Shown here: positions 27,518-32,380 of the stretch, piece after piece
Layout of the letters: each line of letters opens with the position of its first letter
How positions within the stretch are numbered: position 1 is the first letter of the stretch
Program-made: the position numbers and the translations under genes
DNA from: Chitinophagales bacterium
Lineage (GTDB): Bacteria > Bacteroidota > Bacteroidia > Chitinophagales > S012-47
DNA length: 32,380 bases
Direction of reading: 5' to 3'
Assembly (NCBI GenBank): GCA_015487695.1
Contig: WFPF01000005.1
Location: 1 to 32,380, forward strand
The notes under the pieces: model-generated
What the model was told of the DNA's origin: nothing
What the model saw: the letters and a program-made list of their open reading frames with translations, nothing else
The model's database searches: none

Positions 27518-28078
27518 ATGGCGCGCATCCGCATTATCGGAGAAGACGAAGCAGAAGGCCTTCTCAAGGAAATATACGATCAACTGACAGCCAGGCGCGG
27601 ACAGCTGGCCGAGGTACATAAACTTCAGAGCCTGCGGCCCAAAAGCATCCTCCGGCACATGGAACTCTATATGGAGATCATGTTTACCCGATCGGAGCTG
27701 AGCCGGGCCGAACGCGAAATGATGGCGGTGGTCGTTTCGGCTGCCAATGCCTGCCACTATTGCATGGAGCATCACGGAGCTGCGCTCCACTTCTACTGGA
27801 AAGATGCCGCACGCCTGGAAGAGCTGAAAAAAGACTTTTCACGGGCCGGACTCAATGAGCGGGAAACGGCTCTGGCCCGCTATGCCCGACATCTGACTCT
27901 GCATCCGCAGGAACATGCCGGAAAGGATTTCACCGGGGCACTGCGGGCGCATGGCCTCAGTGACAAAGGAATTCTTGATGCCACGCTGGTTATCTCCTAC
28001 TTCAACTTTGTAAACCGCATGGTAGCAGCCCTCGGAGCCGAACTGGAGGCCCATGGCGGAGAAGGTTTTCAATATTAA
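27518..28078 (+). CDS. AhpD/carboxymuconolactone decarboxylase-like protein (peroxidase-related)
   Basis: This 186-residue cytosolic protein has the CMD/AhpD fold signature ANACHYCMEHHGAAL (76-90), giving C79-x2-C82-x3-H86, the redox-active cysteine pair and proton-relay histidine of alkylhydroperoxidases. A conserved helix, SRAEREMMAVVVS, precedes it. The sequence fits the uncharacterised peroxidase-related enzyme group. The frame extends upstream to 27305, but that part is Arg-rich and overlaps the methyltransferase gene; the family start is MARIRIIGEDEAEG. It is likely a thiol-dependent peroxide reductase with an unknown electron donor. Confidence 0.87.
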   Translation: MARIRIIGEDEAEGLLKEIYDQLTARRGQLAEVHKLQSLRPKSILRHMELYMEIMFTRSELSRAEREMMAVVVSAANACHYCMEHHGAALHFYWKDAARLEELKKDFSRAGLNERETALARYARHLTLHPQEHAGKDFTGALRAHGLSDKGILDATLVISYFNFVNRMVAALGAELEAHGGEGFQY

Positions 28079-28095
28079 AACTTGCGATACGCTTT

Positions 28096-28875
28096 TCAGG
28101 CAATTTTAAGCAGATAATCGACCACCACGCGGTTGAATTCATGCGGCTTGTCGACATTCACCACGTGTCCACAATCAGCAATCACATGCAATGTGGCCGA
28201 GGCATGACTTTCGCTGATTTTCCGGATGGTTGGCAAAAACATATAGTCTTCGGCCCCCATCACGTAGAGCGTGGGAATATTCACCTCGCGAGAGCGGAAA
28301 AGACGGAGGATGGGCTTCACTTCAGCAGCCAGCCTGAACCAGCGGATAAACTCCTTTTGATAAAGTTTCCTGGCTTCCCGCACAAAAAGATTGCGCGATT
28401 CGCGGTGTTTGCGCCTCGGCATGATGTTGAAAGCAAAAAACTTGTAAAGGATGATATAAGGAATCACCGATTTGAACCATACCCCGAAGCGCATGAGCAA
28501 CTGCGACTGAGTAGTCATCTTGAGAGTCGCCCCGCCCATTATCATGCCCGAAACGCGTTCCGGATAGTGCTCTGCGAGCACACGGATGATAATTGTGCCC
28601 AAAGAGATACCCACGAAGTGGGAGCGGTCTATTTTCAGGTGATTCAATACTTCAATGACATCGCGGGAGATGAATTCGAAGGTGTAACACTTCAAATCCC
28701 CGGGCATGGGTATTTTGGAACGTCCGTGCCCCCGCAGATCAACCAGGAGTACGTTAAAATGTTCTCTGAAAGCCTTCACCTGTTTGTACCAGATAGAGGA
28801 ACTGCCCCCTGCCCCGTGGACAAAGGTCACCCAGGGGGCCGAGGGGTCTTTTAGATATGTGCTGAAATGAAGCAT
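28096..28875 (-). CDS. Alpha/beta-fold hydrolase with intact catalytic triad
   Basis: This 259-residue protein has the oxyanion motif HGAGG (20-24), VDLRGHGRS (45-53), nucleophile elbow GISLG (89-93, S91), acid D210 in MGAEDYM and catalytic histidine H237 in CGHVVN. A lid of about 75 residues (120-195), rich in aromatic and basic residues, lies between the core parts. No signal peptide is seen, so it is cytosolic. It is most like small-ester hydrolases or MhpC-type enzymes; the substrate is unknown. It converges on the CMD-like gene with a 17-bp gap and is divergent from a second, degenerate hydrolase-fold gene. Confidence 0.9.
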   Translation of the reverse strand: MLHFSTYLKDPSAPWVTFVHGAGGSSSIWYKQVKAFREHFNVLLVDLRGHGRSKIPMPGDLKCYTFEFISRDVIEVLNHLKIDRSHFVGISLGTIIIRVLAEHYPERVSGMIMGGATLKMTTQSQLLMRFGVWFKSVIPYIILYKFFAFNIMPRRKHRESRNLFVREARKLYQKEFIRWFRLAAEVKPILRLFRSREVNIPTLYVMGAEDYMFLPTIRKISESHASATLHVIADCGHVVNVDKPHEFNRVVVDYLLKIA

Positions 28876-28888
28876 GGGGTATTGCGGC

Positions 28889-28896
28889 CAAAGATA
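28889..28896 (-). promoter_or_regulatory. Promoter -7 box (TATCTTTG) for the alpha/beta hydrolase
   Basis: It matches TAnnTTTG on the minus strand, 13 bases from the ATG at 28875, predicting a leader of only a few bases. Confidence 0.45.
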
Positions 28897-29014
28897 TCAA
28901 AAGCCGGTCAATGAGAAGCTGCAATGCACCTGAACAGAAAGATGAGTGTTGCCCGCCTGCTTCACACTCCGTTTTTAAGCCGTGCCTGCCCGCTTTTTTA
29001 GAGATATTTGCAGA

Positions 29015-29842
29015 ATGATATTTATCAGGTTCCGCTCCTTGTTCCCTCAGGCCATGCTCCTCCTCGTCACAGCCCTTATGATCCGCTGTGCACCGCATAT
29101 CCGGGAAGAGCAGGACGGCTTTGCCGCCATGGAGGACGGCAGCCGAATCTACTATGAAAAAGTGGGCTCGGGCAAAGAGGCCGTAGTGCTCATTCAGGGG
29201 CCCTGTCTCGATCGCAGCATATGGGACAGCAGCGTCAGTGAACTGAAGGATGAATACACACTGCTGCGCTTTGATCCGGCCGGCACGGGGCGCTCCACCA
29301 CCCCCAATCCTGACTATAGCCCCCTCGGCATCGCGCGGCAAACACTGGCCGTCATGGATGCCTGTGGCATACGCAAAGCCATCTTCATCGCCTACGGCCC
29401 TGCCGATCAAGTCATGCTGGCGCTCAGCCGTGAAGCTCCGCAGAGAATTTCGGGTCTTCTCTCCATCGAGGGCTTTCTCTGGCTCGGCTCCGGACCAGAG
29501 GCCGAGCTCTCCGGCTGCTTCAGATACCCAAAGAAGGAAGATATTATGGATTGTTTGCAGGGCGGTCCCGAAGCTGCCGCATATTTGCACCTGCCCTGCC
29601 CCGGGTGGGAGGAGTATACCGGGCATAGCAGCCGCTCCACCGGTATGATTGAGAAATTACCCGTTCCGCTGCAAATCATCATTTCAGGCCAAACCGATGC
29701 ACTTGAGGCTGCCGGGGATTCCTGCTGTCCGGCCGGTCTCATCCTCTATCCGCTAAATTGTGAGGGCCGTCTGCCCATGCTGCGTTGCCCCGTAGCTCTG
29801 AATCGCGAATTGCGGATAGCCCTGGCTTCAGCAGGAATCTGA
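29015..29842 (+). CDS. Cysteine-rich alpha/beta-hydrolase-fold protein lacking catalytic Ser and His (probable pseudoenzyme)
   Basis: This 275-residue protein starts with a hydrophobic segment (about 11-24) followed by C25, which could be a signal or lipoprotein anchor, although Arg before the Cys is unusual. The core is an alpha/beta-hydrolase: VVLIQGPCLDRSIWD, LLRFDPAGTGRSTTP and a candidate acid at D228. The nucleophile elbow reads YGPADQ, with Ala130 where Ser is expected. The histidine region reads CEGRLPML, with Arg252 instead of His, and the oxyanion HG is QG. Ten cysteines are present. The frame opens at 28982, but M12 of that frame gives the better signal-like start. Confidence 0.78.
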   Translation: MIFIRFRSLFPQAMLLLVTALMIRCAPHIREEQDGFAAMEDGSRIYYEKVGSGKEAVVLIQGPCLDRSIWDSSVSELKDEYTLLRFDPAGTGRSTTPNPDYSPLGIARQTLAVMDACGIRKAIFIAYGPADQVMLALSREAPQRISGLLSIEGFLWLGSGPEAELSGCFRYPKKEDIMDCLQGGPEAAAYLHLPCPGWEEYTGHSSRSTGMIEKLPVPLQIIISGQTDALEAAGDSCCPAGLILYPLNCEGRLPMLRCPVALNRELRIALASAGI

Positions 29843-29906: not shown

Positions 29907-29983
29907 GGCCGCGTAGTTCAATTGGATAGAACATCAGATTTCGGCTCTGAGGGTTGAGGGTTCGAGTCCTTCCGCGGTCACCA
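29907..29983 (+). tRNA. tRNA-Arg, anticodon TCG, CCA encoded
   Basis: A full cloverleaf can be drawn. The acceptor GGCCGCG pairs with CGCGGTC (one G-T), D stem GTTC with GAAC, anticodon stem TCAGA with TCTGA, and T stem GAGGG with CCTTC (one G-T) around TTCGAGT. The seven-base anticodon loop TTTCGGC places TCG at 29941-29943, reading CGA and, by wobble, other CGN arginine codons. CCA is encoded at 29981-29983. It is followed at once by a strong terminator, so it is a single-gene transcription unit. Confidence 0.96.
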
Positions 29984-30244: not shown

Positions 30245-31039
30245 ATGAAAAAAACAAGTTTTAAAATACGCCAAATGGATTGTCCGGCCGAAGAAGCACT
30301 GGTACGTGCCAAACTGCAAGCTTTTGAGGATATCCGGCACCTCGACTTTGACCTTCCGCAGCGTCAGTTGACCATTTATCACGAAGGCGAGAGCGCCCCC
30401 CTTGCCAAAGCCCTTGCCGAGCTGCACCTGGGCGAAACACTGATTGGGAGCGAGGAAAGCGAAGCGGAAACCTTCAGGGAGCAAAGCAATCAGAAAAAAT
30501 TGCTTTGGACCGTGCTTGCCATCAATTTTGCCTTCTTCATCTTCGAAATGGGTACCGGCCTCCTCTCGCGCTCCATGGGCCTTGTGGCCGACAGCCTCGA
30601 TATGCTGGCCGATTCCTTTGTTTATGGAATCAGCCTCCTTGCCGTGGGTCGTTCCCTCCGCAGAAAAAAAAGAATCGCCCGCCTGGCCGGATATTTTCAG
30701 ATTGTACTGGCATTAAGCGGATTTGCCGAAGTGCTGAGGCGCTTCTTTCTTACAGGAGAAAGTCCCGATTTCAGAACCATGATCGTGGTTTCACTGCTTG
30801 CGCTGGCTGCCAATGCCTATTCCCTCTATCTCATGCAAAGATCGAAAAGCCGGGAAGAAGCGCATATGAAAGCCAGCCTGATTTTTACCTCGAATGACAT
30901 CGTCATCAACCTGGGTGTCATCGCAGCCGGGGTTCTCGTATATCTCTTCCATTCAGCCCTCCCTGATTTACTGATCGGAAGCATCGTTTTTCTCCTCGTT
31001 GTCCGAGGCGCCATCAGAATACTGAAAGTGGCCCGGTGA
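30245..31039 (+). CDS. CDF-like cation transporter with N-terminal HMA-like domain
   Basis: This 264-residue protein has an N-terminal ferredoxin-like domain (about 1-75) resembling heavy-metal-associated domains, with a single Cys in QMDCPAEEALV (C13) rather than CxxC. A cation-diffusion-facilitator membrane part follows (about 87-262, six predicted helices). TM2 carries DxxxD in ADSLDMLADS. In TM5 the usual HxxxD is replaced by FTSND, so the canonical zinc site lacks its histidine. The cytosolic C-terminal domain of CDF proteins is absent. It probably moves or senses a transition metal, but the ion is unclear. It stands alone after tRNA-Arg. Confidence 0.8.
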   Translation: MKKTSFKIRQMDCPAEEALVRAKLQAFEDIRHLDFDLPQRQLTIYHEGESAPLAKALAELHLGETLIGSEESEAETFREQSNQKKLLWTVLAINFAFFIFEMGTGLLSRSMGLVADSLDMLADSFVYGISLLAVGRSLRRKKRIARLAGYFQIVLALSGFAEVLRRFFLTGESPDFRTMIVVSLLALAANAYSLYLMQRSKSREEAHMKASLIFTSNDIVINLGVIAAGVLVYLFHSALPDLLIGSIVFLLVVRGAIRILKVAR

Positions 31040-32319: not shown

Positions 32320-32380
32320 ATGGAAAAGCGAACATTCACAAAAGAGCAAAAGCTGGCCATTATAAAGGAAGCCTCTGAGC
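32320..32380 (+). CDS. IS3-family transposase OrfA (helix-turn-helix subunit), N-terminal fragment
   Basis: Twenty codons are visible before the window ends: MEKRTFTKEQKLAIIKEASE. The xFTxEQKLAIIKE pattern is the usual start of IS3/IS911-type OrfA proteins, whose helix-turn-helix binds the element's ends. In that family a second frame (OrfB, DDE integrase) normally follows by programmed -1 frameshift; here that part is outside the window. Confidence 0.72.
   Translation, partial: MEKRTFTKEQKLAIIKEASE

What the first reader, a model, noticed from the sequence alone, without database searches (positions are those of the whole stretch)
29015..29842. Cysteine-rich alpha/beta-hydrolase pseudoenzyme next to an active-looking relative
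The nucleophile Ser is Ala130 (YGPADQ), the catalytic His is Arg252 (CEGRLPML) and the oxyanion HG is QG, while the fold and the final P-x-x-x-N-R segment are kept. The divergent neighbour at 28096-28875 has an intact triad (S91, D210, H237) and aligns in the same regions. Ten cysteines and a hydrophobic N-terminus suggest an extracytoplasmic, possibly disulfide-stabilised protein. Loss of two triad members with an intact frame points to a binding or sensing role rather than decay.
Basis: partly seen in the sequence, partly recalled or inferred. Interest (0 to 1): 0.5.

Follow-up and report, generated by a model that had tools for sequence, protein, structure and literature searches.

The report
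Enzyme-shaped protein with dead active site
A bacterial gene encodes an apparently exported, enzyme-shaped protein that lacks the residues needed for catalysis, and its counterpart in a sister species lacks them too, so it probably now works by binding something: a modest example of an enzyme turned non-enzyme.

Summary
Window 29015-29842 encodes an apparently exported alpha/beta-hydrolase-fold protein (275 aa) without a serine-hydrolase triad. The only orthologue found, at the same locus in the one other genome of the genus held, is also dead: Ala at the nucleophile slot, Pro at the His slot. The window protein has no His after residue 204. Of 50 relatives, 50 keep the His and 44 the Ser. The loss therefore most simply predates both species, while the replacement residues drift. 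Both frames are open at 40% identity and omega = 1 is rejected. The sister clade is four lipoprotein-like Chitinophagales hydrolases; grouping with the divergent neighbour is rejected (p-AU 0.0055). The pair has a shortened cap and Cys180, Cys249 and Cys258; Cys25 (lipid position) and Cys64 look inherited. Most likely it is a periplasmic pseudo-esterase kept for binding or scaffolding; that role is inferred. Open points: Arg at lipobox position -1 here, dN 4-10 times that of flanking genes, saturated dS, only two sequences. It is a new member of a known kind: non-catalytic alpha/beta-hydrolase-fold proteins.

The parts
29015..29842 (+). Pseudo-hydrolase CDS, 275 aa, alpha/beta-hydrolase fold, signal-like N-terminus
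   Evidence: (PF00561 27.5 bits, cutoff 25.8)
29003..29010 (+). GATATTTG, one mismatch to TAnnTTTG (Bacteroidota -7 consensus, recalled), 4 nt before the ATG; the same box stands 4 nt before the orthologue's ATG
29087..29089 (+). Cys25, lipid-cysteine position; window MIRC is non-canonical, orthologue LAAC
29195..29197 (+). Gln61 in place of the oxyanion HG His (His in 46 of 50 relatives; Pro in orthologue)
29204..29206 (+). Cys64, conserved in the orthologue and common in relatives (17 of 50), hence probably ancestral
29396..29398 (+). Gly128, the nucleophile slot (Ser in 44 of 50 relatives, Gly in 5, Ala in 1; Ala in orthologue)
29552..29554 (+). Cys180 in the shortened cap, aligned to a Cys in the orthologue; Cys in 1 of 50 relatives (cap alignment unsure)
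29696..29698 (+). Asp228, acid slot; opposite Asp of the orthologue in two alignments and opposite Glu in two others
29759..29761 (+). Cys249, conserved in orthologue, 0 of 50 relatives
29768..29770 (+). Arg252, catalytic His slot (His in 50 of 50 relatives; Pro in orthologue)
29786..29788 (+). Cys258, conserved in orthologue, 0 of 50 relatives
28096..28875 (-). Divergent neighbour: alpha/beta hydrolase with intact triad, best NCBIfam match PcaD (120.8 bits, below its cutoff 255.85); not a close relative of the pseudo-hydrolase
29907..29983 (+). tRNA-Arg(tcg), same place in the sister species

Best explanation
A pseudo-esterase found only in this genus. An ancestral exported, probably lipid-anchored alpha/beta-hydrolase lost its Ser nucleophile, catalytic His and HG oxyanion His, most simply before the two species split, and has a cap about 20-35 residues shorter than its relatives plus Cys180, Cys249 and Cys258. 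Shown: fold (predicted), residue losses in both species, conserved locus, rejection of neutral evolution in the fitted model. Inferred: it sits on the periplasmic side of a membrane; Cys249-Cys258 (and possibly Cys64-Cys180) form disulfides that lock the former His loop and pocket; and it works by binding a ligand or partner protein, as neuroligins or NDRG proteins do, rather than by hydrolysis.
For: Both proteins lack Ser and His at the slots. The window protein's only His are 28, 192 and 204, all before the last strand (242-247), where the catalytic His would follow, so its loss does not depend on alignment. Relatives: His 50 of 50, Ser 44 of 50. Residues 31-150 of the model have block pLDDT 81-97. 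Fold: Z 21.4, rmsd 3.4, 208 aligned; orthologue Z 23.1, rmsd 3.1, 216 aligned. Same locus: start of the neighbour's orthologue, pseudo-hydrolase, tRNA-Arg(tcg), CDF gene. omega = 1 rejected, 2dlnL 70.5; identity at codon positions 0.57/0.61/0.37. 0 of 300 neutral runs free of stops. Sister clade of four lipoprotein-like hydrolases, 97/91. Cap 65 and 52 residues, median 87 in 50 relatives. All five Cys of the orthologue face a Cys here.
Against: Only two sequences, both from fragmented assemblies. dN 0.58 is 4-10 times that of three flanking genes; dS is saturated, and with the CDF gene's dS (1.1) as clock omega would be about 0.5, with the CMD gene's (0.53) about 1.1, so relaxation is not excluded. 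The window's lipobox has Arg at -1. The relatives' profile does not reach the His slot and model confidence there is lower (blocks 241-260: 64 and 79), so slot 252 in detail rests on MAFFT. Ser is not universal in relatives (6 of 50 lack it). No ligand, partner or expression evidence; no coordinates to measure Cys-Cys distances.
Confidence: 0.62

Rival explanations
1. A relic under relaxed selection: an ancestral lipoprotein esterase that lost activity and is drifting, with the frame still open only because loss is slow.
For: dN 4-10 times that of the flanks; omega near 0.5-1.1 if flank dS is used as clock; unlike residues at the dead slots (Gly/Ala, Arg/Pro); lipobox apparently degraded in the window; gene not found in the two other genomes of the family.
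Against: omega = 1 rejected, 2dlnL 70.5; neutral simulations to 41% identity gain 6.9 stops on average, 0 of 300 with none; all five orthologue cysteines kept; promoter-like box kept.
Confidence: 0.2
2. An enzyme with a new chemistry: the fold uses a non-serine centre (conserved Cys, Asp or Tyr) for catalysis.
For: Tyr127, Asp131, Cys64 and Cys249 are identical in both species.
Against: No nucleophile at the elbow, no His column shared, oxyanion His lost in both, cap shortened. The acid slot Asp228 faces Asp or Glu of the orthologue depending on the alignment and is not Asp in any of the four sister proteins.
Confidence: 0.08
3. A metal- or redox-responsive lipoprotein in which Cys64/180/249/258 form a metal site, working with the downstream CDF cation exporter that carries an HMA-like stretch.
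For: Four conserved non-lipid Cys; adjacent CDF gene in the same order in the congener, Pfam Cation_efflux 63.3 bits, HMA just under its cutoff (23.1 against 24.8).
Against: A tRNA gene lies between them; no co-occurrence test is possible with two genomes; Cys64 is common in the superfamily (17 of 50).
Confidence: 0.06
4. Annotation artefact: the real gene is the antisense ORF 28754-29626 or there is no gene.
For: A 290-aa antisense ORF exists in the window.
Against: Within the gene the antisense is open over 214 codons here but at most 80 in the orthologue; the sense protein has Pfam, fold and orthologue support.
Confidence: 0.01

Closest known systems
Four lipoprotein-like Chitinophagales alpha/beta-hydrolases (L049, L052, L053, L058)
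   Same: Sister clade, 97/91; N-terminal hydrophobic stretch with a Cys aligned to Cys25 (4 of 4; Ser or Ala at -1; 2 of 4 match my lipobox pattern); same Pfam-type N-half
NDRG proteins (nonenzymatic alpha/beta-hydrolase fold; PMC7022630, passages read)
   Same: Triad residues replaced by non-reactive ones while the fold is kept
   Different: Human proteins of another family; PF03096 not listed for P0001 at E <= 1
Neuroligin, glutactin, gliotactin, neurotactin and the thyroglobulin C-terminal domain (PMC5943944, passages read)
   Same: Non-catalytic members of the superfamily; neuroligin is a cell adhesion ectodomain
   Different: Animal, cholinesterase-type, larger (recalled); not compared directly here
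Est816 (5egn) and Pseudomonas hydrolase 3om8
   Same: Best sequence matches among solved structures (E 5.9e-10 and 6.5e-10)
   Different: They carry Ser at the elbow (alignments); the match covers only residues 36-170

Membership tests
alpha/beta-hydrolase fold superfamily | Fold and sequence profile | tested here: met
   PF00561 27.5 bits (cutoff 25.8); orthologue 39.9 bits; model Z 21.4, rmsd 3.4, 208 aligned to 1zoi
Serine hydrolases of this fold (active) | Nucleophile in GxSxG | tested here: not met
   Gly128 here, Ala in orthologue
Serine hydrolases of this fold (active) | Catalytic His after the last strand | tested here: not met
   No His after residue 204 in the window protein; Arg252 here, Pro in orthologue; His in 50 of 50 relatives
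Serine hydrolases of this fold (active) | Acid residue | tested here: inconclusive
   Asp228 here; the orthologue has Asp opposite it in the alignments and Glu in those; the sister clade lacks Asp there
Bacterial lipoprotein | Signal with lipobox ending in Cys (consensus recalled) | tested here: inconclusive
   Orthologue LAAC25 fits; window MIRC25 has Arg at -1
Bacteroidetes surface lipoprotein | Export signal K-(D/E)2 or Q-A-(D/E)2 after the Cys (PMC5080379, abstract) | tested here: not met
   CAPHIREEQ and CGPRIGEKQ, read by eye
NDR family | PF03096 match | tested here: not met
   not listed for P0001 at E <= 1
Paralogue of the divergent neighbour | Groups with P0002 in a tree | tested here: not met
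   p-AU 0.0055 against a clade; the group was tested after seeing the tree, and P0002 has a long branch
Pseudoenzyme | Measured lack of activity | not testable with these tools
   needs purified protein

The most novel reading that the evidence does not exclude
A bacterial esterase lipoprotein rebuilt as a non-enzymatic periplasmic binder: the dead catalytic-His loop is bracketed by a newly evolved Cys pair (249/258) which, with Cys64 of the oxyanion loop and Cys180 of a shortened cap, makes either a disulfide-locked ligand pocket or a thiolate metal site in the former active site, possibly serving the adjacent HMA-like CDF metal exporter.
Probability: 0.1. Interest if true: 0.55.

Novelty: new member of a known kind. 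Interest (0 to 1): 0.3.

Why it matters
A small bacterial case with a sister clade that keeps Ser and His, a preserved locus and few derived features would let the step from enzyme to binder be tested directly. It also shows how a GxSxG slot read by eye can be off by two.

Tried and rejected
Orthologue hunting outside the genus. Genome-contig scan with P0001: none. With A2: 12 loci, of which only the known congener matches over most of the length. Order draw, 396 genomes, E <= 1e-8: 125 genomes match, but every listed match outside the genus ends at or before profile position 237 of 277, most near 150; the best, G030 at 1.7e-17, has an intact GHSMGG and His. Class and phylum draws, 395 genomes each, E <= 1e-16: only the own genome matches; these are samples, overlap the order draw, and cannot have included the congener, which would have matched. 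Two other genomes of the family (82% and 89% complete): no match. In one of them the neighbour's orthologue (64%, E 6.4e-118) has on that side a 104-aa and a 748-aa ORF (the latter TonB-receptor-like by eye), not the pseudo-hydrolase.

Rejected or weakened: antisense ORF; a triad with a shared His; Cys64 as a derived disulfide partner, being Cys in 17 of 50 relatives; the neighbour as paralogue. A viral scan with P0002 found nothing. I first took the 104-aa protein in G003 for an HMA domain; Pfam did not list HMA for it at E <= 0.01. I first wrote that Asp228 is identical in both species; on recheck this holds in two of four alignments, so the acid is now called inconclusive.

Literature: one search gave 0 papers, one (on malaria serine hydrolases), 16 (12 listed), 283 (15 listed). 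I saw no bacterial lipoprotein pseudo-hydrolase of this kind in the listed titles and abstract starts; that is no proof of absence. One search was on lipoprotein export.

Rows dropped: L042 (reading interrupted) from A3 and A4; L044 and L046 (near-copies of L043) from A3, L046 from A4. One search took 56 of the genome-search loci (L004-L031, L048-L075; own, congener and loci of later searches left out): 54 had a complete ORF hit, 49 were distinct; these plus P0002 are the 50 relatives. The tree flags P0003 for odd letter make-up and P0002 for a long branch.

Full report
What is there. The window is one whole contig (C5, 32,380 b) of a 2.77-Mb, 137-contig genome. The congener's record is titled Chitinophagales bacterium. 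The ORF 29015-29842 (+) encodes 275 residues with a weak but above-cutoff Abhydrolase_1 match (27.5 bits against 25.8). AlphaFold2 with an 11-row alignment gives mean pLDDT 74.3 and pTM 0.73: blocks of residues 31-150 lie at 81-97, 158-207 is below 50, and the C-terminal blocks (211-275) run from 51 to 90. The orthologue gives 81.2 and 0.80. Both match many alpha/beta hydrolases: Z 21.4, rmsd 3.4, 208 aligned, and Z 23.1, rmsd 3.1, 216 aligned.

The dead site. A profile built from 50 relatives without the two pseudo-hydrolases aligns residues 40-152 at 97.5 bits and sets the elbow Ser opposite Gly128; Ala130 is opposite the second Gly of GxSxG, as. In the orthologue the slot is Ala in all four alignments checked. 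The His slot is Arg252 here and Pro in the orthologue; the oxyanion His is Gln61 here and Pro there. Among 50 relatives the His slot is His in 50, the nucleophile slot Ser in 44, Gly in 5 and Ala in 1, and the oxyanion His is His in 46. The profile does not extend to the His slot, so that assignment rests on MAFFT alignments; but the window protein has His only at 28, 192 and 204, none after the last strand (242-247 in the model), where the catalytic His of this fold would lie. The orthologue has one His (248) beyond its last strand, in the final helix, facing no His here. Asp228 at the acid slot faces Asp in two alignments and Glu in the other two, and the four sister proteins lack Asp there, so nothing can be built on the acid.

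Orthologue and locus. The only orthologue found is in the one other genome of the genus held (G001:C45, record JALSIH010000045.1; 40% identity, 43% over the matched stretch). The order start of the P0002 orthologue (C45:1-87, minus strand), pseudo-hydrolase, tRNA-Arg(tcg), CDF-type transporter is the same; the rest of the P0002 orthologue (87% identical) opens contig C93. Draws of 396, 395 and 395 genomes of the order, class and phylum gave no other orthologue. In another genus of the family the P0002 orthologue has different genes on that side. On present sampling the gene is confined to this genus; the family genomes without it are only 82% and 89% complete.

Selection. A codon model fitted by maximum likelihood (my own script) gives omega 0.097 with saturated dS (6.0); omega = 1 is worse by 2dlnL 70.5; identities at codon positions 1, 2 and 3 are 0.57, 0.61 and 0.37. 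Simulated neutral decay to 41% identity yields 6.9 stops on average and never zero in 300 runs. Against this, dN (0.58) is far above P0002 (0.068), CDF (0.146) and CMD (0.056), and dS differs widely between these genes (5.4, 1.1, 0.53), so it is unreliable; using the CDF dS as a clock would give omega about 0.5, the CMD dS about 1.1. The protein is constrained but fast-evolving, and partial relaxation cannot be excluded.

Origin. In a tree of 52 proteins the pair is one clade (100/99), and the branch uniting it with four hydrolases that keep Ser and His has support 97/91. All four carry a hydrophobic N-terminus with a Cys aligned to Cys25; two of four match my lipobox pattern. A clade of the pair with the neighbour P0002 is rejected (p-AU 0.0055; caveats: long branch, tested after seeing the tree, odd letter make-up of the orthologue). 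The pair has a shorter cap (65 and 52 residues against 84-89 in the four; median of 50 relatives 87, one of 50 at 65 or less).

Cysteines. The window protein has Cys at 25, 64, 117, 168, 180, 195, 237, 238, 249 and 258; the orthologue has five, all aligned to Cys25, 64, 180, 249 and 258. Cys25 is the lipid position. Cys64 is Cys in 17 of 50 relatives, hence probably ancestral. Cys249 and Cys258 are in 0 of 50 and Cys180 in 1 of 50, the cap alignment being unsure; seven relatives carry some Cys within columns 246-262, four of them two residues before the His. Cys249 and Cys258 bracket the dead His slot. A disulfide there is inference; no coordinates were available to measure.

Export. The orthologue has a standard lipobox (LAAC). 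The window has MIRC; Arg at -1 is outside the lipobox consensus as I recall it. No surface-export signal of the K-(D/E)2 or Q-A-(D/E)2 kind (PMC5080379, abstract) follows either Cys, so the periplasmic face is the likelier place if the protein is lipidated.

Promoter. A GATATTTG box, one mismatch from TAnnTTTG (consensus recalled), stands 4 nt before the ATG in both species. Of 12 full TAnnTTTG matches in the window, five stand 4-5 nt and one (P0002) 13 nt before the ATG of an ORF (no chance expectation computed).

Verdict. The finding is a real, probably functional, non-catalytic alpha/beta-hydrolase-fold protein. Such proteins are known as a kind (NDRG3, PMC7022630, passages; neuroligin and others, PMC5943944, passages; AXR4, PMC10756756, passages). 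Its binding role is inferred and its partner unknown.

Noticed in passing
L009, L011, L015, L026, L061 (genomes G046, G058, G021, G063, G159 of the same order): A separate clade (100/97) of alpha/beta-hydrolase-like proteins with hydrophobic N-termini has GFGDGG where its sister L028 has GWSDGG: Gly at the nucleophile slot, His kept. An independent loss seen in two families, better sampled than the window's case.
   Followed up: partly
L054 (G041): A hydrolase with GIAMGG, Ala at the nucleophile slot and His kept; its close relative L051 has GLSMGG.
   Followed up: no
window 11907, 12800, 25230, 22482(-), 5145(-), 28896(-): TAnnTTTG boxes lie 4-5 nt (28896: 13 nt) before ATG codons, which could give very short or leaderless transcripts.
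   Followed up: partly
window 27518-28078 (+) and 28096-28875 (-): A carboxymuconolactone-decarboxylase-family gene converges on a PcaD-like hydrolase; the same pair stands together in the congener.
   Followed up: no
window 30245-31039 (+): Cation-efflux (CDF) protein with an N-terminal HMA-like stretch, 77% identical in the congener.
   Followed up: no
window 32320-32380 (+): The contig ends inside an ORF that looks by eye like the start of an insertion-sequence transposase; not searched.
   Followed up: no
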